Of a stretch of 64,000 nucleotides of DNA, positions 3,363 to 63,275 are shown one piece after another. The DNA is from Heloderma charlesbogerti (taxonomy: Eukaryota > Chordata > Lepidosauria > Squamata > Helodermatidae): the NCBI GenBank assembly GCA_026122225.1, contig JANEZZ010001494.1, positions 1,798,001 to 1,862,000 on the forward strand, given 5' to 3'. A program made the translations under genes and the position numbers. The notes beneath the pieces were generated by a model. It saw only the letters and a list, made by a program, of their open reading frames with translations. It was not told the origin of the DNA and ran no database searches. Numbering within the stretch: the first letter of the stretch is position 1; each line of letters opens with the position of its first letter.

Positions 3363-5903
3363 TTATGCAGCCACATCCCATTGTTGGCTCATCTTCAGCT
3401 TGTGATCGACAACAATTCCAAGATCTTTCTCGCTTGTAGTGTTGTTGAGCCACGTATCGCCCGTCTTGTAACTGTGCATTTGGTTTCTTTTTCCTAGGGG
3501 CAGAACTTGGCATTTATCCCTATTAAATGTCATTCTGTTGTTTTCTGCCCAGCGCTCCAGTCTATCCAGATCACTTTGAATTTTGTTTCTGTCTTCCAAA
3601 GTATTAGCTATCCCGCCCAATTTTGTGTCATCTGCAAATGTGATCAGCATTCCCTGCACCTCCTCCTCCAAGTCATTAATAAAAATGTGGAAGAGCACTG
3701 GGCCCAGGACTGAGCCCTGCGGTACCCCACTCGTTACCTCTCCCCAATTTGAGAAGGTCCCATTGATAAGCACTCTTTGAGTCCAATCCTGTAGCCAACT
3801 GTGGATCCACCGGATCGTTGTTTCATCTAGCCCACTTTGAGCTAGTTTGCTCATCAGGATATCATGGGGCACTTTGTTGAAAGCTTTGCTGAAGTCGAGG
3901 TATATGATGTCTACAGCATTCCCACGGTCTACAAGGGAGGTTACTTGATCAAAAAATGAGATCAGATTTGTCTGGCAGGACTTGTTTTTGACAAATCCAT
4001 GTTGGCTTCGAGTAATCACGGCATTGTTTTCAAGGTGCTTCCAGATGGATTGCTTTATCATCTGCTCCAGAATTTTCCCTGGGATTGATGTCAGACTGAC
4101 TGGTCCGTAGTTCCCAGGTTCCTCCTTTTTACCCTTTTTGAAGATAGGGACAACATTAGCCCTCCTCCAGTCATCTGGCACTTCCCTCGTCCTCCATGAT
4201 TTCTCAAAGAGAATAGACAGTGGTTCTGAGAGTTCTTCTGCCAGTTCCTTTATTACTCTAGGATGCAGTTCATCTGGCCCTGGAGATTTGAACTCATTCA
4301 AAGTCATTAGGTGTTCCTTGACCATATGCCTATCGATCTGAAGCTGCAATCCTGCCCCTTCAGCCTGCACTTCGCCTTTGCCAGGGGGGTCATAGACCCT
4401 CTTTTGGGAGACGACTGAGCCAAAGTAGGAATTGAGCACCTCTGCCTTTTCTTTGTCATCTGTTATCGTTTTGCCATCCTTATTTAATAGCTGAACAACC
4501 ATTTCTTTCCTCTGCCTTTTACTATGCACGTAGCTGAAGAAAGCCTTTTTGTAGTTTTTAGCATCACTCGCTAACCTCAGCTCGTTGTCAGCTTCAGCCT
4601 TCCTGACGCCATCCCTGCAATTCTGTGCTACCTGCCTGTGCTCTTCCTTTGTTACTTGGCCTTCTTTCCACTTCCTATATGTGTCCTTTTTTGTTTTCAG
4701 GTCATCCCTAAGCTTTTTGTGAAGCCACATTGGCTTCTTCTGTTGTCTTCCACCTTTTCTTCTTGTTGGAATTGTTTGTGATTGTGCCTTGAGAATTTCC
4801 TTTTTTAAAAGCTCCCACCCATCTTGGACTCCTTTTCTCGTTAGCGTCGCTTGCCATGGGACCTTACTGATCATTGTTCTGAGTTAATTAAAATCAGCTT
4901 TCCTAAAATCCAGGGTACACGTTTGACTACACTCAGCTTTTGCTTCCCTTAGAACCAAGAACTCAAGTGCAACATGGTCACTTTCCCCCAGAGTTCCTAT
5001 AACTGCTACTTTCTCCACTAAGTCATCTCTGTTGGTTAGGATCAAGTCAAGGATAGCCGATCCTCTAGTTCCTTCCTCTACTTTCTGTAGGAGGAAGTTA
5101 TCTGCAACACAAGTCAGGAATTTCCTGGAGGGGCCATGTTTTGCAGAATTTGTCTCCCAACAAATATCGGGGAAATTGAAGTCCCCCATTACTACTACAT
5201 CATGCTTCCTTAAAACATTGGCTATTTGCTTTTCAAAAGTTTCATCCTCATCTTCTCCTTGTTTGGGTGGCCGGTAGTAGACTCTGACCACCAGGTTCCT
5301 TTTATTCTTTGCTCCATTTATTTTGATCCAGATGCTCTCGATGGGGCTACCAAGCTCATCCTCCTGTATTTCTGTGCAGAGATATGTATTTTTCACATAC
5401 AGTGCAACCCCACCTCCCTTTCTGTTCCTCCTGTTCTTTTTGAACAAGTTATATCCTTCAATTGCTGTATTCCAGTCATGAGAGTCATCCCACCAAGTCT
5501 CAGTTATACCTATCAAGTCATAATTTCCCTCCTGTATTAAGAGTTCAAGTTCGTTCTGTTTGTTTCCCATACTCTGGGCATTAGTATATAGACATCGAAG
5601 ACCATGTGCTTCATTGTCTGGCTTTCTTCCTACATGTGTCTGAAGACTACTATTGGGCGCTATCAGAGCTGTTCTCTCCGTTGCAGAGCATGCGCCTACG
5701 TCCATTGTTACCCCCAACATTACATCTCCCTTCCCCGTAGGATTCAGTTTAAAGCCCTTCTGATGAAGTTCTTCATGCTGTGGCCAAACACATTCTTCCC
5801 ATCCTTTGTGAGGTGCAACCTGTCCCTTGCCAACAGCCCATCTTCCAGGAAGTATAGCCCGTGGTCCCAGAATCCAAATCTCTCTTGTCGGCACCACCTT
5901 CAT
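3363..5903 (-). pseudogene. CR1 ORF2: endonuclease plus reverse transcriptase, interrupted
   Basis: The right half (4884-5903) encodes an apurinic/apyrimidinic-type endonuclease: an early [11 protein letters not shown] motif, [22 protein letters not shown] and [10 protein letters not shown] are all visible. The left half (3363-4874) encodes the reverse transcriptase, with SPGPDELHPRVI, AFNKVPHDIL, GVPQGSVLGP and the catalytic FADDTKLGG. The halves are in one frame and separated only by an in-frame TAA at 4884-4886, after DFRKADFN. A second TAA ends the frame after QQWDVAA near 3363, where the following KANA continues recognisable CR1 sequence to about 2870 with further damage. It would have copied CR1 RNA at a nicked target; it is inactive as it stands. 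Confidence 0.9.
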
Positions 5904-6770
5904 AGCCAGTCATTCATCCAGAGTATTTGTCTTTCCCTTTTTATCCCTCTTCTAACTACTGGAAGGATGGATGAGAAAACTATCTGGGCCCCAAAGTTCT
6001 TGAGTTTCCTTCCCAGAGCTTCAAAGTATGACGTGATTTCTTCGTAGCTCCGCTTGGCGGTATCATTTGTTCCCACATGGATGAGAAGAAAGGGATACCT
6101 GTCAGTGGGCTTTATGAGTGCAGGCAACCTTTCAGTCACGTCTCTAATTCGTCCTCCCGGGAGACAACATACCTGGCGAGTCTACGGATCTTCGCGACAT
6201 ACTTGGGTCTCAATCCCACGCAGCAAGGAGTCTCCCACTACTACCACTCTTCTCTTCTTGTTGTTGTAGGCCTGGGTTTCATCGCCTCTGTTTGACTGAC
6301 CTTCAGCCTCTTGCTCACTCTCATGTAGGTTCCCCTGTGATTCTTCCTCTGCAGGCTGTCCTCCAGTCTCATCTGCAAGTACCTGGAACCGGTTCCACAG
6401 CTCCACTGCTTCCACTGGTGCAGAGTGGCGTCTAGTTCTTCTTCTCCTAACTGTCATCCTTTTCCAAGGAGTATCCTCTACTCCATTTTTCTTCACCTCA
6501 GCATTTCCCACTGCCTCATCTTGCTGTTGCTCTTCAAGCTTCTGGTCTGCCCTTTGCTGCTGTAGTTCTCCCATTCTGTCCAAGAACTCTTTGTGTTCTC
6601 TTATTCCCCGGAGGGTCGACAGTCGCCGCTCCAGTCCACTTACTTTTTTCTTCCAGCAGCATGATCAACTTGCACTTGTTGCAGGTGTAGGCCATGTTGT
6701 TCTCAGGCAAGAAAACAAACATTGCACACACCTTGCAGGTCACCACCACTGGAGAGTCTTGTCCTTCCAT
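5900..6770 (-). pseudogene. CR1 ORF1 remnant (Cys-rich N-terminus and esterase-like domain)
   Basis: Three overlapping open pieces (6534-6770, 6182-6583, 5900-6139) together resemble CR1 ORF1. The N-terminal piece has two Cys-x-x-Cys pairs (VTCKVC and YTCNKCKLIMLLEEK), a zinc-binding and coiled-coil type start. The middle piece ends in VVVVGDSLLRGIETQVC, carrying the GDS serine motif of SGNH-type esterases. The last piece carries LLIHVGTNDTAK, the GTND block of the same fold. The frame changes between pieces show it is frameshifted. The esterase assignment follows from these blocks and known CR1 architecture. Confidence 0.8.
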
Positions 6771-13276: not shown

Positions 13277-13553
13277 AGAGCGATTTGAAACCGAAATGTT
13301 GATTTTCAATTCCCCCTCCATTTCAATTTTATAAAGGTTTGTATAAACTATATCTTCTGTTTTGCTCATAAAAATGGCAAAGACTAATATTAAGCATTAA
13401 CTTGCCAAACTCAATATTTTGGCAAGTTAATGCTTAATATTGTTCTTTGAAATTTTTATGAGCAAGATGGAAGATCTAGTTTTATACTAACTTTTATAAA
13501 ATTGACATTTGAAAAGAAAATGAAATTCAACATTTTAGTTTCAAATTACTCAC
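13277..13553. mobile_element. Long AT-rich foldback element
   Basis: Two arms of about 130 bp are inverted copies of each other. The innermost part, AATATTAAGCATTAACTTGC and its complement, is essentially perfect, and the outer parts (TGCTCATAAAAAT / ATTTTTATGAGCA, GATTTGAAAC / GTTTCAAATT) are diverged. The whole would fold into one hairpin. I see no coding sequence. Confidence 0.75.
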
Positions 13554-13993
13554 TGCATACTACATGTTTTCCTTTGTTTTGTCCTTTGTTTGCCATGTAT
13601 TACTGTTGATTGCCTAATAAATCCTGATGGATTGAAATTTTGTGCTCCTAAGCCTCTAAATTCCACGATGTCCATAGCAGGAGTGTTGTTACAATCTTGA
13701 ACTGGGAACATATAAATATGCTTTTTCCCTCCCCCAAGCAAAATATTACTTAGCTAGGTAGCTTGAGAACTCTTCCTTCTTCTTCGTTAATTTCACGGCT
13801 ACCTCCCCTTCCCCCTTTCCTACCCTCTGAGTCCACCCCTTTCTTCGAGGACATTTCTTCTGCACGACTTCAGCAGAAGGAACAATTTGGAGCAGTATCT
13901 CAACTATTTATAATGCAGCCAGCTGCGCTGAATGAGGACCTCAATTCCCCCAGGAGAGGAAATGTAAAACAACACGCATCTCCGCTGACTTAC

Positions 13994-14407
13994 CTGCTCA
14001 TGCATGTCTAAGATGTTTTGCTCGTAACCCTTGAAGTCATACCGGGCGTTGTGAGACCTCTTCTTGTGCCACTCCCGGATGCAGCCCTCCAGCTGAGTGT
14101 TGGCCTCCTCCAAGGAACGCACCTTGTCCAGATAGGCAGCCAAGCGGTTGTTCAGCTCCTGCATGGTCTGCTTCTTGTTCCTTCCCAGGAAGAGGTCCCC
14201 ATGGCTCCCAGGAAAGGCGCCCCAACCTGCCCCTGCATCAGAGGCCAGCCAGGTGGGCCCTCCAAAGGACATGGGAACGTGTGTACTGCTACTTCCCCCG
14301 TGCAAACTGGAAGCTCTGTAGGAATCTCCAACATGCATGAGGCCGCATCCTGCAGCACCCCTGAGAGACCCGGAAGAAAAGTGGTAGATGCCTTGGCTGC
14401 AGCTCAT
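13994..14407 (-). CDS. Type I keratin, exon 1 (head plus coil 1A start)
   Basis: The exon encodes 138 residues from ATG at 14405-14407 to a GTAAGT donor at 13992-13993, phase 0, which is where type I keratin genes have intron 1. Residues 1-76 are a Gly/Ser-containing head beginning MSCSQGIYHF with only two cysteines (3 and 21). From about residue 78 comes the helix initiation region (TMQELNNRLAAYLDKVRSLE, EEANTQLEGCIREW), characteristic of type I intermediate-filament keratins. Keratins of this type pair with type II partners to form cytoplasmic filaments of epithelial cells. An in-frame upstream ATG (MGHFSDS) exists, but the MSCSQG start gives a normal head length and an A at -3. The head is of the soft-keratin kind, unlike the hard keratin at 50-63 kb. 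Exons 2 onward should lie to the left, but none is visible down to base 1. Confidence 0.85.
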
Positions 14408-14508
14408 CCTGACATCTATGAGGAACTGAATGTACACACAAACTCCGCTCTCTCTCGCTTTTGACTTACTGGCACTGTCTGAGAAGTGTCCCAACCTTCC
14501 TTAAGCGC

Positions 14509-21855: not shown

Positions 21856-22464
21856 TAGGGATGTAAGAGAAATCCTCCATGGACCCAAATGAGGCCGGAT
21901 TCTATTGAATCCAGCCCACCGAAGTCCATGGAGGATTGGATCTCCTACCTCCAAAGTCCTTGCCGACTGGATCCTGCCTGCCGCCGGCTCCGAAGCCCCA
22001 GCGATACGGCTGCCATTGCTATACTGCTGGCTGGACTGACAGACTGTAGATGCAAATGGCGTCTGCTATGCCATTTGCGTCCCTGCTCTTTGATGTGATA
22101 GGCTATGTAAAGATTTACATAGCCTATTATGTGAAAAAACAGGGATGCAAATGGCATATTTGCGTCCCTGTTCCTTTGCGTGATAGGCTATGTAAAGATT
22201 TACGTAGCCTATCACGTCAAAGGGCAGAGACGTAAATGGCGTCTGCTATGCCAGATGCCATTTGCGTCTGCAGTACGTCAGTCAAGCCTGCGATATGGCA
22301 ATGGCAGCCATATCGCTGGGGCTTTGGAGCCTACCGGAGGCTCCGCAGAATTGCCATGGAGCGGAGCCGGCCAGCGAGGATTCTGGGGGGAGGGATGGAT
22401 CACTTCCCCCCCCCGCGGACCCCCCCCCTGCCGGAACGGCAGGTAAGTAATTCGTACATCCCTA
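21856..22464. mobile_element. hAT-like palindromic MITE, perfect 8-bp TSD
   Basis: TAGGGATGTAAGAG at the left and TTCGTACATCCCTA at the right are flanked by the identical octamer GCCGGAGT (21848-21855 and 22465-22472). Inside, two small hairpins with TAGGCTATGTAAA / TTTACRTAGCCTA arms (about 22096-22126 and 22181-22213) sit between larger inverted segments containing ATGCAAATGGC / GCCATTTGCGT. A GGTAAGTAAT splice-donor-like word lies just inside the right end. Confidence 0.9.
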
Positions 22465-26849: not shown

Positions 26850-27372
26850 TAGGGATGGATGGACTCACTGCCATCCAGTTTTGCCACCACTCGCTCCCCC
26901 TGGACCTGCTCACCAAGCCTCCGTGCTCACCCAGACCTGCTTGCCGAGCAGCCGCACACCCGGTGAATGGATCCGGCAGCTGCCTGTCCTCTTAGCGAGC
27001 TTTGCATAAAAATGGCAGCTTGGGGATTTCTGGGAATCTAATGTTGCACTAAAGGTGGCTGTAAAGGAGCCATTTACACAACATTACAGGTGTGAATGGA
27101 CCATTTACACCTGTAATGTTGCATAAATACCCTTTTACGGCCGCCATTTGCATAACTTTAGATGTACAGAAATCTCCGAGCCACATTTTTTATGCAAAAT
27201 GGGTGGTTTGCCTAGAGGACGAGCAGCTGCTGGACCCACTTGCTGTTGCATGGCTGCTTGGCGAGCAGGTCCGGGCGAGCATGGGGTCTCAGTGAGTAGG
27301 TCCGGGGAGAGGGAGTTGGGGGGGGGAGTCCACTGGACTCCACCCCCTTCCTGGACTGTCGCGCCATCTCTA
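26850..27372. mobile_element. hAT-like palindromic MITE, 7/8 TSD
   Basis: It runs from TAGGGATGGATGGACTC to GTCGCGCCATCTCTA and is flanked by ATCTTTGG (26842-26849) and ATATTTGG (27373-27380). The centre is a hairpin around CCATTTACACCTGTAATGTT with outer arms GCATAAAAATGG / TTTTTTATGCAAA. The long frames on both strands are composition artefacts. Confidence 0.75.
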
Positions 27373-27946: not shown

Positions 27947-28406
27947 TAGGGATGGTGGAGAAATCTGCTGCGGATTCAAATCAGGGCAGAATCTCAAGAA
28001 TCTGACCTGTGAAATCCACAGTGGACCAACCCCACTCACCTCTAGCACCATTGGATTTCCTGCAGGGCGGCTCTCCTCCATTTGAAACATATGCCATTAG
28101 CCAATCATGGGAAAAATATGGCCGCAAAAGGAAGTTTATGGCATTTGCAACCATAAAGCACTTTCTTTTATTTGCTTTACGGCCACAAATGCCATAAACT
28201 CCATAATTCACAGCCGTATTTTTCTCACGATTGGCTAACGGCAGCTGCCATTAGCTGATCGCGCTGTTTAGAATGGAAGACAGCCACCCATGAAATCCGA
28301 TGGACATAGTAAGGCTCCAGGGAAATCCACGGGGTGCAAGCAGCCCGGATTTCCCCACTGTGGACCCCCTGCCTGGACCAGAAGTCACAGTGTTCATACA
28401 CCCCTA
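27947..28406. mobile_element. hAT-like palindromic MITE, perfect 8-bp TSD
   Basis: It starts TAGGGATGGTGGAGAAATCT, ends CATACACCCCTA, and is flanked by GTGGATTC at 27939-27946 and 28407-28414. The central inverted arms include AAGTTTATGGCATTTG / CAAATGCCATAAACT and AAATATGGC / GCCGTATTT. Confidence 0.9.
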
Positions 28407-31012: not shown

Positions 31013-31743
31013 TAGGGACGTTAGAGGATTCCGCCACGGACTCCAATGAGGCTGGATTCTTTAGAATCTGCCCCCCTGGAGTCTGTGGTGGAACGGAGCA
31101 GTGTTGTCGTCCCCGCCACCCTGCGAAATTTTCCCAGGACGTACCCTACCTGGCGTTGGCCGGTCCGTTCCGTTCACTGCCCTGGTCTGCGGCCGCGAAT
31201 GGCTGCCCCGGTCTGCGGCTGCCATTTGCCTCCCTGCGTTAGCTGTGATAGGCTACGTAAGTATTTACGTAGCCTATCATGGCAAAGAGCAGGGACGCAA
31301 ATGGCATCCGCTACGACATTTGCTTCACTACTCTTTGCCGTGATAGGCTACATAAATATATATGTAGCCTATCACGGCTAACGCCGGGATGCAAATGGCA
31401 GCCGCTACACCATTTGCGTCCCGGCGTTAGCTGTGATAGGCTACATATATATTTACGTAGCCTATCACGAAAAGAGCAGGGATGGAAATGGCATAGCAGG
31501 TGCCATTTGCATCCCTGCTCTTTGCTGTGATAGGCTATGTAAATATATAAGTAGCCTATCATGGCTAACGCCGGGATGCAAATGGAGCCCACTACGCCGG
31601 ACGCAATTTGCGGCCACAGCCCGGCAGCAGACAGAAGTCCGGCTACGGGCGGGCCCAGCTGGTGGCTCCGCCAACTCACCGGATCGCCTCCCCCCCAGCG
31701 GACACCCCCACCCGGAACAGGGTAAGTAATCCGCCCATCCCTA
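31013..31743. mobile_element. hAT-like hierarchical-palindrome MITE, perfect 8-bp TSD
   Basis: It runs from TAGGGACGTTAGAGGATTCC to CCGCCCATCCCTA, flanked by GCACACAA at 31005-31012 and 31744-31751. Four small hairpins of the GTGATAGGCTACGTA type occur between 31235 and 31565, separated by ATGCAAATGGC/GCCATTTGCGTCC segments that pair with each other. The hairpin at 31338-31377 has 17-bp perfectly matched arms although both TACGTA cores have become TACATA/TATGTA. Confidence 0.92.
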
Positions 31744-32517: not shown

Positions 32518-32920
32518 TCGATAAGAAAACAGCCGTCATGCAGGCAAGAACCGCAGACCTCTCTTTAGCGTCACAGAAGAGGGGGTGGAGACACAGAAAA
32601 GGAAAATGTGCCTCCAATGAGCATTGAGCCAAAATTTCTCCAAAAAGAATTGCCTGGTAATTCTTCTAAGAATTTTCTTTCTTGACCTCCCCCTGTGAAC
32701 TGCGGGAGAATATTTGACAAAATGGCCTCCCCACTTCAGGATGGAGCATTTCAGGATCCGGCCTTAATATGGCTTAATATTATTTTAATATTGTTGAAGG
32801 TAGCAGTGGGTTTGGACCCTAATCTGTCCACTCCTGTCTTAGGGAGCACACTGCCTCTTTCATCCACCAGTGTGAACTAATAAATAGAACTGATACAAAC
32901 TGTTTCAGGAGGGAATTTTC

Positions 32921-33840
32921 TAGGGGTGCACGAAAGTCACTTACCTGGTCTCGCAGCTTTTCGCGGTGGGGGGGAGGCGCTTCGCTGCTCTCCCTGCGAA
33001 GTTCAGGCCGGGGGGGGAGGCTTCCCGTGTCGCCCGGCCGAAATTCAGGCCGGGGGGGAGGCGCCTCGCCTCGCCTGGCCGCGAAATTAAAAGTTAAAAA
33101 AAAAAACGCCCCCGTGATAGGCTACGTGACGATTAACGTAGCCTATCACGGCTAGATCTGCAAAGTCAGCCGTGATAGGCTACATAAATTGTCACGTAGC
33201 CTATCACGGGTGACTTAAAAAAAAAAAAAAGCGCGTACGCAAATGGCGGCCCCCATAGGGAGCCGCCATTCCCGTTCCTTATTTGGTCGCTGTAGTCTAC
33301 GTAAATCTTTACGTAGACTACGGCAAAAATAAGGGCAACACAAATAGCGTTGCCCTTATTTTTGCCGTAGTCTACGTAATCTTTACGTAGACTACAGCGA
33401 CCAAATAAGGAACGCGAATGGCGGCTCCCTATGGGGGCCGCCATTATCCGTACGCGCTTTTTTTTTAAAGTCACCCGTGATAGGCTACGTGACGATTTAC
33501 GTAGCCTATCACGGCTGACTTTGCAAATCTAGCCGTGATAGGCTACGTTAATCGTCATGTAGCCTATCATGGGGGCGTTTCATTTTTCTTTTATTGGAAT
33601 GGCGGCGGTGGCAGCCGGTCAAAAGACCGGCTGCCGCTCCCGCCCCGGACAAAGACCCGACGAACCGCCGGCCGGACCCCCCGCCAGGAGGGACATTCGG
33701 GAAAGGTAAGTCCCGTCCCGGGGTGTGTGTGCGGGGGGCGGGGGGGTGCGGAGAATTTCTCCCCGAAACTTGTTCGGGGGGCTGAACACGTTGGTGCTTG
33801 GCCCCCCGAAGTTTCGGGGAGAAATTCTCCGCCATCCCTA
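32921..33840. mobile_element. hAT-like hierarchical-palindrome MITE, reference copy
   Basis: It begins TAGGGGTGCACGAAAGTCAC and ends TTCTCCGCCATCCCTA, flanked by GAATTTTC at 32913-32920 and 33841-33848. Six small hairpins are visible: four with CGTGATAGGCTACGT arms (33113-33150, 33171-33208, 33476-33513, 33534-33571) and two with GTAGTCTACGTAA arms (33292-33321, 33367-33395). The halves are inverted copies around about 33347, and the linkers (GCGGC...GCCGC near 33246-33268, AAGGGCAAC...GTTGCCCTT) are themselves palindromic. The ends differ: the left has ACTTACC plus a G-rich tandem block, the right a GGGGAGAAATTCTC hairpin. No transposase is encoded. Confidence 0.93.
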
Positions 33841-34036
33841 GAATTTTCTGAAAATTTTCCTGAGAATTCCCCCCCCCAAAAAAAATCTGCTGGAAATTCT
33901 CCCCCTCCAAGAATATTTATCACCCTCCTCTAATTTTGCCTGTTCTAAACAGAGTGGATAATTTTGGGAGGACATTTTCATTCAGCCCTGCCTCCAACAG
34001 CCCTTTCCAGCCTGAATAAGCATTGGGGTTTGGAAA

Positions 34037-35629: not shown

Positions 35630-36318
35630 TAGGGATGGACGAAAGTCCCTTGCCTGGTCCTGCAGCTTTTTTCGGGGGGGTGGGGAGGCGCTGCGGTTCT
35701 CCCCCCGAAATTCTTGGTGGGTGGGGAGGCGCCCCACCCCTCCTGGCTGAAATTCTGGCTGGGGGGGAGGCGCCCCATCCCTCCCTGCCGAAATTCTGGC
35801 CGGGGGGGAGCGCCCCGTCTCCCCGGCCGCAAAAGAAAAAAGTAAAGTGTAAAAAAAAAAAAAAAGTGATAGGCTACGTAAAGATTTACGTAGCCTATCA
35901 CGGCTAGATTTTCAAAGTCAGCCGTGATAGGCTACGTAAATCTTTATGTAGCCTATCACGGCTGACTGAAGAGAAAAAAAAAAGCGCGTACGCTATTTGC
36001 GTTGTCCTTATTTTCGCTGTAGTCTACGTAAATCTTTACGTAGACTACCCGTGCCCAAATAAGGAACGCAAATGGAGGCGCCCATGGGCGCCGCCATTTG
36101 CATACGCGTGTTTTTTTTTCAAAGTCAGCCGTGATAGGCTACGTAAAGATTTACGTAGCCTATCACAGCGGACTTTGAAAATCTAGCCGTGATAGGCTAC
36201 GTAAATCTTTACGTAGCCTATCAGGTTTTGTGGGTTTTTTTACACTTTACTTGGAAATGGCGGTGGCGGCAGCCGGTCGGAAGACCGGCCGCTGCCGCCG
36301 CAACGCTGCCGAACCGTT
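35630..36318. mobile_element. hAT-like hierarchical-palindrome MITE, right end lost
   Basis: The left end TAGGGATGGACGAAAGTCCC and the G-rich tandem block (35670-35830) match the left end of 32921-33840. Four CGTGATAGGCTACGT hairpins (about 35867-35902, 35922-35960, 36129-36167, 36187-36222) flank one GTAGTCTACGTAAA hairpin (36019-36048). The expected second central hairpin and the terminal hairpin end are absent; the sequence stops where an L2-like tail begins. Confidence 0.85.
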
Positions 36319-36409: not shown

Positions 36410-37206
36410 GGGTTGTCGCTGATTTATGGGTTGTTCTTGAATCATGGGTTGTCATTACATGTGAACCACACACTATGGTTTAACTATGAGTTGTTAACCA
36501 ACAACAACCCAGGAAGAGAACCCATGGTTTGTTGCTGGGTTGTGAACTCTGGGTTGTTCGTGGTTAACAACTAGGGATGTGAGAACTCACCCTAGTTTGG
36601 TTCTCCGTGCACTCGCTGAAGCAGCGTCCCTGCTCGCTTCCCCCTGCCCCTGAACCTGTGCTCGAGCCACCCACGGGTTTGGTGAATTCCCCAGCACTCA
36701 CCGTGAACCATTTGGTGAGCACCGCCATTTTTGTGCTTTTGCTTTCTAGGAAAAACAGGAAGTTAAAAAAAATTGCATATTCAAATATGCACAGTTTGGA
36801 GCTGGGAAAGCTAAATAATCGCAATATTAGAGGGATTATTCCTCTAATATTGTGCTTATTTGGCTTTCCCAGCTCCAAACTGTGCATATTTGAATATGCA
36901 TTTTTTAAAATGTCTTGTTTTTCCTAGAAAGCAGAGGCGCAAAAATGGCAGCGCTCACCGAACGGGTTTGTGGTACTTTGGAGCATGAGCAGGCACAAGC
37001 AGGGGGCAAAAAGAGAGTGTCTCAGCGGGCGTAGTTCAGGGGTCGCGGGCAGGGGATTCTCAACGAATTCCGGAACCCCAAACTGCGCTCGCGACATCCC
37101 TATTAACAAGCCATAGTTAAACCATAGTGCCAGGTTCTCACATAACAACAACCCATGATTCAACAACAATCCACAGTTCAATGACAACCCATACGCAGGG
37201 TCGTCC
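36410..37206. mobile_element. Foldback element with GGGTTGT arms, split by a later MITE
   Basis: The left part (36410-36571) and right part (37103-37206) are inverted relatives: GGGTTGTCATT, ATCATGGGTTGT and CTATGGTTTAACTATG on the left face CATAGTTAAACCATAG, ACAACCCATGAT and AATGACAACCCAT on the right. A hAT-like MITE lies between them. Confidence 0.7.
36572..37102. mobile_element. hAT-like palindromic MITE, nested, 7/8 TSD
   Basis: It starts TAGGGATGTGAGAACTCACC, ends GCTCGCGACATCCCTA, and is flanked by TTAACAAC (36564-36571) and TTAACAAG (37103-37110). The central hairpin spans roughly 36769-36907 with arms including GCATATTCAAATATGCACAG and CTGTGCATATTTGAATATGC. It inserted into the GGGTTGT foldback element. 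Confidence 0.88.
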
Positions 37207-42705: not shown

Positions 42706-43549
42706 TAACCAGTTTATTCACTGACTAGCTGAAAAAGGGCTCTCCAGCATATACAAGGTCAGTCACCAGCTCAGCTCACATACCACAAGACCTTATTCAG
42801 GAGGAGGAATAATCCGCTCAACCTTCAATTTCAGTGCATGAGAGTGGCTACCAAGCTCTCATTTTTTACTTCGAAGAGCTCACGTCAGTCACATTTGGGA
42901 CTTTGTATCTGAGATCCGAAGCGGTTGGATATACTTCTCATTGAAAGCAGACTGCAAAGCCTTTCTTTGCACAGCAATGTTCAAGCAAGTGTGACCACAG
43001 CGTGAGCAAAAACAACACTCTGTAGTGTGAGAATTCGTTATGAGAATACCTGTGACTCATTATGGCTTAAAAAAAAAAAGTATTCTATTTGCCTATTAGA
43101 ACTAAAAAAAAAAAAAGCTTTTTATACTCTTTGCAAAACATTCAGCTTAAAATCATTACAGAGGGCCTCTGCTGAAAAGAGCTGAAACCACAATTTGTAT
43201 ATCGAATGAACAGAAACCACCTTGCAAACTGCCAGTACAAAAAAAACACCCCTCAACCATTGTTCATTAAGGCTATTTGCTTCTCCTTAGTTTTGGTGAG
43301 TTGTGCCTGTGGGGTGAGGTGTGTGTGTGTACATGTTACACAGGCAGTTCATGCTGTTGTGCAATGCTTATTCATAAGCCTAAAGATAACACAACTCTTA
43401 ACATTCGCAACTCAAGTCCAAATATGTAAAAGGCTTAACTGTAAGCAGAGTTATTCAGGAGCACAGTAGAGCCAGTGAGCAATTTCATTGTCCCATCTGC
43501 CACTGGTGTGAAAAACATGCCATAGAACTGTAGACCTGTTGTTGTCTTA
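42706..43549. other. Unassigned non-coding stretch
   Basis: Two A-tracts at 43070 and 43105 and a short TG run near 43320 are the only notable features. Confidence 0.45.
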
Positions 43550-43640
43550 GGGTGCAATCCTATGCATGTTTAGACAGAGAAAAGGCCTACAACTATGTTG
43601 TAGGCCTTTTCTCTGTCTAAACATGCATAGGATTGCACCC
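43550..43640. mobile_element. Perfect 44-bp palindromic MITE with TTA duplication
   Basis: The arm starting GGGTGCAATCCTATGCATGT at 43550-43593 is matched without a mismatch by 43597-43640, around a 3-nt loop TAT. It is flanked by TTA on both sides (43547-43549 and 43641-43643), the duplication type of PIF/Harbinger elements. Old copies of the same sequence elsewhere (35314, 49328) are much more diverged. Confidence 0.88.
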
Positions 43641-43643
43641 TTA

Positions 43644-50233: not shown

Positions 50234-63275
<13,042 letters not shown>

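What the first reader, a model, noticed from the sequence alone, without database searches (positions are those of the whole stretch)
32921..33840. Palindrome made of palindromes: hierarchical foldback transposon family
In this copy six small hairpins are arranged symmetrically in the order A-A-B | B-A-A, where A has CGTGATAGGCTACGT arms and B has GTAGTCTACGTAA arms. The linkers between them are inverted copies across the centre, and several linkers are hairpins themselves. Single strands could therefore fold either as one long stem or as a chain of small cruciforms. The element is bounded by an exact 8-bp duplication (GAATTTTC). I know of foldback elements and hAT MITEs but not of one with this multi-level symmetry as a family trait.
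Basis: partly seen in the sequence, partly recalled or inferred. Interest (0 to 1): 0.75.

Follow-up and report, generated by a model that had tools for sequence, protein, structure and literature searches.

The report
hAT MITE built of nested palindromes
A small, gene-less mobile element whose middle is made of small DNA hairpins arranged as palindromes inside palindromes; related copies lie nearby and their mirror-image arms seem to have been copied onto each other, so it is a striking variant of an ordinary kind of transposon.

Summary
At 32921-33840 (E3) lies a 920-bp element with an exact 8-bp duplication (GAATTTTC), TAGGGRTG ends and six small hairpins in the order A-A-B|B-A-A, nested at three levels: hairpin, inverted pair, whole array.

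The window holds eight related elements (about 10.5% of it); seven have exact 8-bp duplications. Seven carry 30 hairpin cores, 29 with the same 28-base span. The mirrored order is not a trait of the whole family: E3 AABBAA, E4 and E7 AABAA, E5 and E6 BBAA, E1 AA, E2 AAAA. More general are the core and inverted adjacency (12 of 15 neighbouring pairs).

Mirror arms look homogenised. E4's two halves are sisters (99/98), and keeping left halves apart from right halves is rejected (p-AU 0.028, post hoc, three copies). A derived GTGA variant sits in exactly the mirror-equivalent arms of all four A hairpins in E3 and E7, nowhere else.

Best reading: a non-autonomous hAT-like MITE, moved by a transposase encoded elsewhere, its interior built and renewed by template switching or arm conversion. 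It is not a classical foldback element: the inverted arms stop short of the ends. The genome search did not complete; Repbase/Dfam could not be consulted.

The parts
32913..32920 (.). target-site duplication, left (GAATTTTC)
32921..33840 (+). E3, the element of the finding, 920 bp, TAGGGGTG...CATCCCTA
33841..33848 (.). target-site duplication, right (GAATTTTC)
32968..33081 (+). left subterminal GC-rich tandem array, 41-bp unit, 2.7 copies (similar arrays in E4 and E7)
33112..33151 (.). hairpin core A1
33170..33209 (.). hairpin core A2, inverted copy of A1 (inverted 3 vs direct 7 mismatches)
33241..33271 (.). palindromic junction J, left
33287..33326 (.). hairpin core B1
33362..33400 (.). hairpin core B2, inverted copy of B1 (arms: inverted 0 vs direct 4 mismatches)
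33416..33446 (.). palindromic junction J, right
33475..33514 (.). hairpin core A3, mirror of A2 (inverted 2 vs direct 7)
33533..33572 (.). hairpin core A4, mirror of A1 (inverted 2 vs direct 8)
33097..33587 (.). whole-array palindrome (outer arms 130 nt, 94% complementary)
33748..33832 (.). right-end subterminal hairpin, 24-nt perfect arms
21856..22464 (-). E1, related element, 8-bp duplication GCCGGAGT, order A-A
31013..31743 (-). E2, related element, duplication GCACACAA, order A-A-A-A
35630..36310 (+). E4, close relative, order A-A-B-A-A, right end lost (no duplication found; right limit approximate)
53473..54378 (-). E5, related element, duplication GGAGGTGG, order B-B-A-A in E3 orientation
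55220..56004 (-). E6, related element, duplication TTTACAAT, order B-B-A-A in E3 orientation
58673..59890 (+). E8, distant relative (no blastn match to E3; matches E5 and E2 in ends and junctions), duplication GTGAAGTC, two 138-bp palindromes C mirrored about a centre (155-nt arms)
62234..63124 (-). E7, closest relative of E3, duplication AGTACAAC, order A-A-B-A-A

Best explanation
E3 is a non-autonomous hAT-like MITE. Shown here: 8-bp target duplications, TAGGG ends, several insertions of related copies, no transposase domain in the window's longer ORFs, nested palindromes. Inferred: a hAT transposase encoded elsewhere in the genome moves it through its end sequences, and the interior takes no part in cutting. 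The interior grows by inverted duplication: a polymerase copying through a hairpin (in replication or in gap repair after excision) switches to the complementary or nascent strand and makes a reverse-complement neighbour (A to A|A', then AA'B to AA'B|B'AA'). The same switching, or gene conversion between mirror arms, later copies new mutations from one arm onto its mirror arms, so the symmetry is renewed. Single B hairpins (E4, E7) are read as deletions from a BB state.
For: Exact 8-bp duplications in 7 of 8 elements. In the end-pattern scan 8 of 40 candidate end pairs matched at 1 mismatch or fewer, against 0 of 40 at each of 20 offset flanks; E2, E7 and E8 have ends outside that pattern and were added by reading. 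Neighbouring same-type hairpins match better inverted than direct in 12 of 15 pairs, direct in 1, tie in 2. E3 mirror arms differ at 3/108 positions (all CpG-type) against 11/108 (7 CpG-type) between a hairpin's own arms (Fisher p 0.0495), so its outer symmetry looks younger than the small hairpins. E4's two halves are sisters (99/98), the all-left clade is rejected (p-AU 0.028), parsimony gives 27 vs 34 steps, although E4, E3 and E7 share order and junctions. The derived variant GTGA (once ATGA) occurs in 8 of 60 arms, exactly the four mirror-equivalent arms of E3 and of E7. On 30 cores, 29 cells have a change on both sides of a pair vs 9.1 (sd 2.6) in shuffles, 0/500. Template switching is reported to homogenise inverted-repeat arms and to create stems (abstracts of PMC8604942 and PMC8794818).
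Against: No transposase gene or autonomous partner was found; the genome search did not complete. The homogenisation test rests on three copies and 106 columns, and the clades were named after the columns had been looked at. Joining E3L with E3R is not rejected (p-AU 0.114; 29 steps). In E7 mirror vs own is 6/90 vs 10/90 (p 0.43); in E5 and E6 whole-array mirror arms match worse than own arms (13 vs 7, 25 vs 19 of 72), as expected for non-mirrored orders. One pair (E1) is direct, and E2's first pair differs by one mismatch only. E3 and E7 keep some left/right differences in register, so homogenisation is not continuous. In one search two measures do not exceed shuffles (pairs with both-side change 7 vs 6.1, 199/500; pair types 21 vs 18.9, 100/500), and relatedness inflates the rest.
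Confidence: 0.68

Rival explanations
1. No conversion: the E4 lineage and the E3/E7 lineage each made their own inverted duplication of an A-A-B block, so each copy's halves are alike because they are young duplicates.
For: The tree alone fits this equally well; other members have one-sided orders (B-B-A-A), so a one-sided ancestor is possible.
Against: E4 and E3/E7 share order, poly-A/GCGCGTACG junctions and, by eye, the outer borders of the mirrored region on both sides; two independent events would have to end at the same places.
Confidence: 0.22
2. The 40-bp hairpin core is a functional site, e.g. a palindromic binding site for the hAT transposase or a host protein, or an origin-like structure, and is kept by selection.
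For: 29 of 30 cores keep a 28-base span; cores are better conserved than the rest between E3 and E4 (19/197 vs 125/436 substitutions, p 4e-8); blastn between E3 and E1 or E2 finds cores and junctions only. Subterminal repeats matter for the hAT enzyme Kat1 (start of abstract of PMC4763223 in the listings).
Against: Core vs rest is not significant for E3-E7 (p 0.16) or E5-E6 (p 0.09), and the E3-E4 contrast includes GC-rich stretches that align poorly; E8 carries other palindromes; by coordinates the cores lie about 180 bp or more from the ends (E2 179, E3 191); homogenisation gives the same pattern.
Confidence: 0.17
3. The hairpins are transcribed and act as RNA (microRNA- or siRNA-like precursors).
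For: Stems of suitable size; both-side changes in pairs; MITE-derived small RNAs are known (recalled).
Against: Rfam scan gives 0 matches; arm copying explains the both-side changes; no transcript data were available.
Confidence: 0.05
4. Assembly or chance artefact.
For: Palindromes are prone to assembly error (general knowledge).
Against: Nested layouts recur in copies with different flanks and different exact 8-bp duplications.
Confidence: 0.01

Closest known systems
hAT MITEs (e.g. Mar in Drosophila; passages of PMC3517528)
   Same: 8-bp duplications, short ends, no coding capacity, several copies
   Different: the passages seen describe AT-rich MITEs made by internal deletion of a transposon; the word stem 'palindrom' does not occur in that text. 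Here GC is 0.52-0.56 and the interior is made of palindromes
Foldback elements Tetris (abstract and part 1 of 2 of the discussion, PMC4079207), Galileo (abstract, PMC4168063), Foldback4 (passages, PMC2955051)
   Same: non-autonomous or defective copies, modular, variable repeat number, inverted organisation; added repeats are suggested to give more transposase sites
   Different: their inverted repeats are the element's own long termini, with tandem repeats inside them; here the termini are short and the inverted arms are internal and built of units that are palindromes themselves
Palindromic teleost 'Angel' elements and the internal inverted repeat of Tol2 (recalled; no paper seen on this)
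   Same: vertebrate non-autonomous or hAT DNA with a palindromic interior; fold-back proposed for amplification
   Different: a single palindrome, not a three-level array, as far as recalled
Quasi-palindrome correction / template-switch mutation (abstracts of PMC8794818 and PMC8604942)
   Same: makes reverse-complement copies and makes arms identical
   Different: described in those abstracts for RNA genes and yeast coding DNA, not as a builder of transposon interiors

Membership tests
hAT superfamily | 8-bp target-site duplication | tested here: met
   exact in 7 of 8 elements (E1, E2, E3, E5, E6, E7, E8); E4's right end is lost
hAT superfamily | short terminal inverted repeats (5-27 bp per PMC3517528) of YARNG type (motif recalled) | tested here: met
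   TAGGG(R)TG at both ends of E1, E3, E5; variants TAGGGACG (E2), TAGAGATG (E6), TAGGGTTG (E7), TAGGGATA (E8) at one end
hAT superfamily | mobilised by a hAT transposase of an autonomous relative | tested here: inconclusive
   no transposase domain in any of the 54 window ORFs of 120 aa or more; shorter or broken pieces not scanned; the own-genome search did not complete
MITE | short, non-coding, with TIRs, several copies | tested here: met
   eight elements of about 0.6-1.2 kb; 12 ORFs of 120 aa or more overlap them and none has a Pfam match
Foldback element | long inverted repeats that begin at the termini and make up most of the element | tested here: not met
   E3 arms lie at element positions 177-667; the termini share about 8 bp
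Foldback element | internal repeats in inverted orientation, variable number | tested here: met
   orders AABBAA, AABAA, BBAA, AA, AAAA
Known Repbase/Dfam consensus | sequence match to a catalogued family | not testable with these tools
   no such library is held; exact core patterns gave 0 matches in viral and prokaryote contigs, which says little for a eukaryote
Structured RNA family (Rfam) | covariance-model match | tested here: not met
   0 matches at gathering score in the window

The most novel reading that the evidence does not exclude
A transposon lineage whose interior is a self-renewing hierarchical palindrome: hairpins double into inverted pairs, pairs into mirrored arrays, and template switching or conversion keeps copying new mutations to every mirror position at several levels, so that symmetry itself is the inherited trait and the sub-families differ by concerted changes.
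Probability: 0.35. Interest if true: 0.66.

Novelty: new variant of a known kind. Interest (0 to 1): 0.47.

Why it matters
Most MITE interiors are treated as inert filler. Here the interior keeps a readable record of how palindromes grow (hairpin, inverted pair, mirrored array) and of mutations copied between mirror arms. With genome-wide copies of known sub-family order, the rate and scale of template switching or arm conversion in an animal germline could be measured directly. It also warns that paired changes in repeat-derived hairpins need not mean RNA selection.

Tried and rejected
Internalised ends: the arm resembles the TIR by eye (TAGG..TACG.AAA), but shuffled arms score as high in 574 of 2000 trials; rejected.

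Flip of the central spacer between E3 and E7: an early impression. In the alignment the left/right differences are mostly in register and I saw one swapped junction site by eye; not claimed.

The first site-pattern table mislabelled columns in which all of E3/E7 agree as left/right differences; the corrected table is (22 variable columns of 106: 6 'E4 both arms against the rest', 0 'all left against all right', 2 E3/E7 left/right, 10 singletons, 4 other).

The first hairpin pairing with a fuzzy regular expression found 15 of the 30 cores; one search replaced it. The E2 boundary was first taken as 31014 or 31015 and corrected to 31013 (string search; used). E8 was first ended at 59891, corrected to 59890.

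Rfam: 0 matches. Exact core patterns in viral and prokaryote contig collections: 0. Ten paper searches: none of the listed rows is, by title and start of abstract, about nested-palindrome hAT MITEs, but most lists were capped (e.g. 25 of 714, 25 of 1,427, 15 of 139, 12 of 69, 15 of 430, 12 of 129), and Repbase Reports and most subscription journals are not held. PMC2874221 (passages) and PMC7492417 (passages) were opened and gave nothing that decides the question; the latter describes oyster Helentron elements with satellite-like arrays and a short 3' palindrome.

Full report
What is there. The finding lies at 32921-33840 (E3). The 8-bp repeat GAATTTTC flanks it exactly; the ends read TAGGGGTG and, inverted, TAGGGATG. 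Inside are six hairpin cores: A 33112-33151, A 33170-33209, B 33287-33326, B 33362-33400, A 33475-33514, A 33533-33572. The array as a whole is an inverted repeat (33097-33226 with 33458-33587, 94%; 33242-33305 with 33382-33445, 98%; 33309-33339 with 33349-33379, 100%). The junctions between hairpins (GGCGGC...GCCGCC) are palindromes too. A scan for short-loop hairpins lists 36 in the window after merging (some are nested levels of the same structure) against 0-1 in ten Markov shuffles, merged by a simpler rule.

Other copies. Seven further related elements lie in the same 64 kb: E1 21856-22464, E2 31013-31743, E4 35630-about 36310, E5 53473-54378, E6 55220-56004, E7 62234-63124 and the distant E8 58673-59890. 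With E3 they fill 6741 bp, 10.5% of the window. Seven of the eight have exact 8-bp duplications, all different; E4 has lost its right end. A pattern scan of ends gave 40 candidate pairs, 8 of which have flanking 8-mers with at most 1 mismatch; the same comparison at 20 offset positions gave none. The ends of E2, E7 and E8 depart from that pattern, so they were found by reading and are not covered by this control. E8 has no blastn match to E3; it matches E5 and E2 in ends and junctions. E1-E7 hold 30 cores; 29 have a 28-base span and one has 27. With the same limit of 5 mismatches, 20 shuffled windows hold 0-2; at a limit of 7 the window has 37 and shuffles have 5-19, so only the 30 are used.

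Order. In E3 orientation: E3 AABBAA, E7 AABAA, E4 AABAA (left junction and one B missing), E5 and E6 BBAA, E1 AA, E2 AAAA (orientation from the ends). E8 has two 138-bp palindromes C mirrored about a centre: C1 matches C2 at 88% inverted and 85% direct; C1's own arms match at 90%, C2's at 82%. So the mirrored order is a trait of the E3/E4/E7 sub-group, while the hairpin core is shared by all seven. Deletion from a BB state in E4 and E7 is inferred: by eye, the left arm of E4's B resembles the centre of E3 rather than E3's outer B arm.

Three levels. The small asymmetry inside each core shows its orientation. In E3, A1 against A2 has 3 mismatches inverted and 7 direct, A1 against A4 2 and 8, A2 against A3 2 and 7. 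Over all elements, neighbouring cores of one type match better inverted in 12 of 15 pairs, direct in 1 (E1), with 2 ties (14 pairs, the E3 B pair). The pairs are not independent, since E3, E4 and E7 share a layout, and one E2 pair differs by a single mismatch. Mismatches between a hairpin's own arms and between mirror arms of the whole array are: E3 11 and 3 of 108, E7 10 and 6 of 90, E4 11 and 9 of 90, E1 5 and 5 of 36, E2 12 and 10 of 72, E5 7 and 13 of 72, E6 19 and 25 of 72. For E3 the contrast has p 0.0495, for E7 p 0.43. Of the E3 mismatches 7 of 11 and 3 of 3 are CpG-type. The outer symmetry therefore looks younger than the small hairpins in E3, is undecided in E7, E4, E1 and E2, and is not seen in E5 and E6, whose orders are not mirrored.

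Mirror arms change together. For the AA block of E3, E7 and E4 (six halves, 106 columns, 22 variable), six columns separate E4's two halves from all four other halves and none separates all left from all right halves; 2 separate left from right within E3/E7, 10 are singletons and 4 are other. IQ-TREE joins E4L with E4R at 99/98; holding the three left halves together is rejected with p-AU 0.028; parsimony needs 27 steps against 34. Caveats: I looked at the columns before naming the clades, joining E3L with E3R is not rejected (p 0.114; 29 steps), and E3L with E7L has only 70/77 support, so the history within E3/E7 is unresolved. The core-arm variant GTGA (once decayed to ATGA) occurs in 8 of 60 arms: A1-left, A2-right, A3-left and A4-right of E3 and of E7, the mirror-equivalent places, and in none of the other 52 arms, E4's included. 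A second variant, GTTA, sits in A1-right and A4-left of both E3 and E7. Because E4 already has the four-A layout with the same junctions and lacks the variant, copying between mirror arms is the simplest reading; two independent inverted duplications with the same ends is the rival.

Covariation. On the 30 aligned cores, 29 cells show a change on both sides of a pair, against 9.1 (sd 2.6) in shuffles, 0 of 500; with the partner slid by 1-3 columns the number is 3-7. Two other measures do not exceed the shuffles: pairs with a both-side change (7 vs 6.1, 199/500) and further pair types (21 vs 18.9, 100/500). The tool warns that relatedness inflates such scores. Arm copying explains the signal without RNA selection, in line with the abstracts of PMC8794818 and PMC8604942.

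Constraint on the core? Substitutions in cores against the rest: E3-E7 10/200 and 51/631 (p 0.16), E3-E4 19/197 and 125/436 (p 4e-8; the rest includes GC-rich arrays that align poorly), E5-E6 43/160 and 207/609 (p 0.09). This leaves room for a binding-site role but does not show it.

Folding. With DNA parameters the E3 array folds best as one stem (-278 kcal/mol); limited to 60-nt spans it forms a chain of small hairpins (-157). The same two numbers are -214/-136 in E7, -170/-122 in E4, -200/-169 in E5, -181/-138 in E2 and -154/-95 in E8; E1 and E6 were not folded this way. Eleven end-pair elements were compared with 12 dinucleotide shuffles each: eight with an exact duplication (E1, E2, E3, E5, E6, E7, E8 and 27947-28406; z -8.9 to -38.9) and three with one mismatch (36572-37102 z -29.5, 26850-27372 z -21.5, 57886-58316 z -4.3). 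Fifteen 700-nt control segments outside, with 8 shuffles each, range from -4.0 to +0.8, so 57886-58316 does not stand out from the controls. Palindromic interiors thus seem common among the hAT-like elements of this window, not special to one family.

What it is. 8-bp duplications, TAGGG ends, small size and lack of coding domains make it a hAT-like MITE; the transposase is inferred to lie elsewhere. All 54 ORFs of 120 aa or more were scanned with Pfam: four match (reverse transcriptase, endonuclease, intermediate filament twice, the second below the curated cut-off), none a transposase; 12 of the 54 overlap the elements and match nothing. It is not a foldback element in the strict sense, because the inverted arms do not include the ends. 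Tetris, Galileo and Foldback4 are the nearest in style. None of the rows listed in the ten paper searches describes this architecture by title or start of abstract; the lists were mostly capped, and Repbase Reports and most subscription papers are not held, so this is weak evidence of novelty.

Limits. The own-genome search did not complete in thirteen identical tries, so everything rests on eight copies in one window.

Noticed in passing
36572-37102: Another hAT-like MITE (TAGGGATG ends, 8-bp duplication with one mismatch, TTAACAAC/TTAACAAG) with a long palindromic centre of other sequence; folding z -29.5.
   Followed up: partly
27947-28406, 26850-27372, 57886-58316: Further hAT-like end pairs with 8-bp duplications (0, 1 and 1 mismatch); folding z -8.9, -21.5 and -4.3, the last within reach of the controls.
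   Followed up: partly
43549-43641: Hairpin with perfect 45-nt arms (GGGTGCAATCCTATGCATG...) flanked by TTA on both sides, which looks like a small PIF/Harbinger-type MITE (TSD rule recalled).
   Followed up: no
13345-13482: Imperfect hairpin with 65-nt arms, AT-rich, ends not defined.
   Followed up: no
3363-5909 (-): LINE-type endonuclease and reverse transcriptase domains in two adjoining ORFs of one frame, separated by a single stop.
   Followed up: no
13904-14500 (-) and 56535-57365 (-): Intermediate-filament (keratin-like) coding stretches by Pfam Filament; the second is below the curated cut-off.
   Followed up: no
58673-59890: By eye, E8's left part (from about 58690) does not resemble the other elements and may hold a nested insertion.
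   Followed up: no
31221-31598: E2's array fits a 187-bp period (2 copies, 85% matches) better than a 94-bp period (4 copies, 74%), i.e. a small higher-order repeat of a hairpin pair.
   Followed up: no
32921-33840: CpG ratio of E3 is 1.17 (array 1.52) against 0.41 in its joined flanks, so the copy may be young or may escape CpG decay.
   Followed up: no
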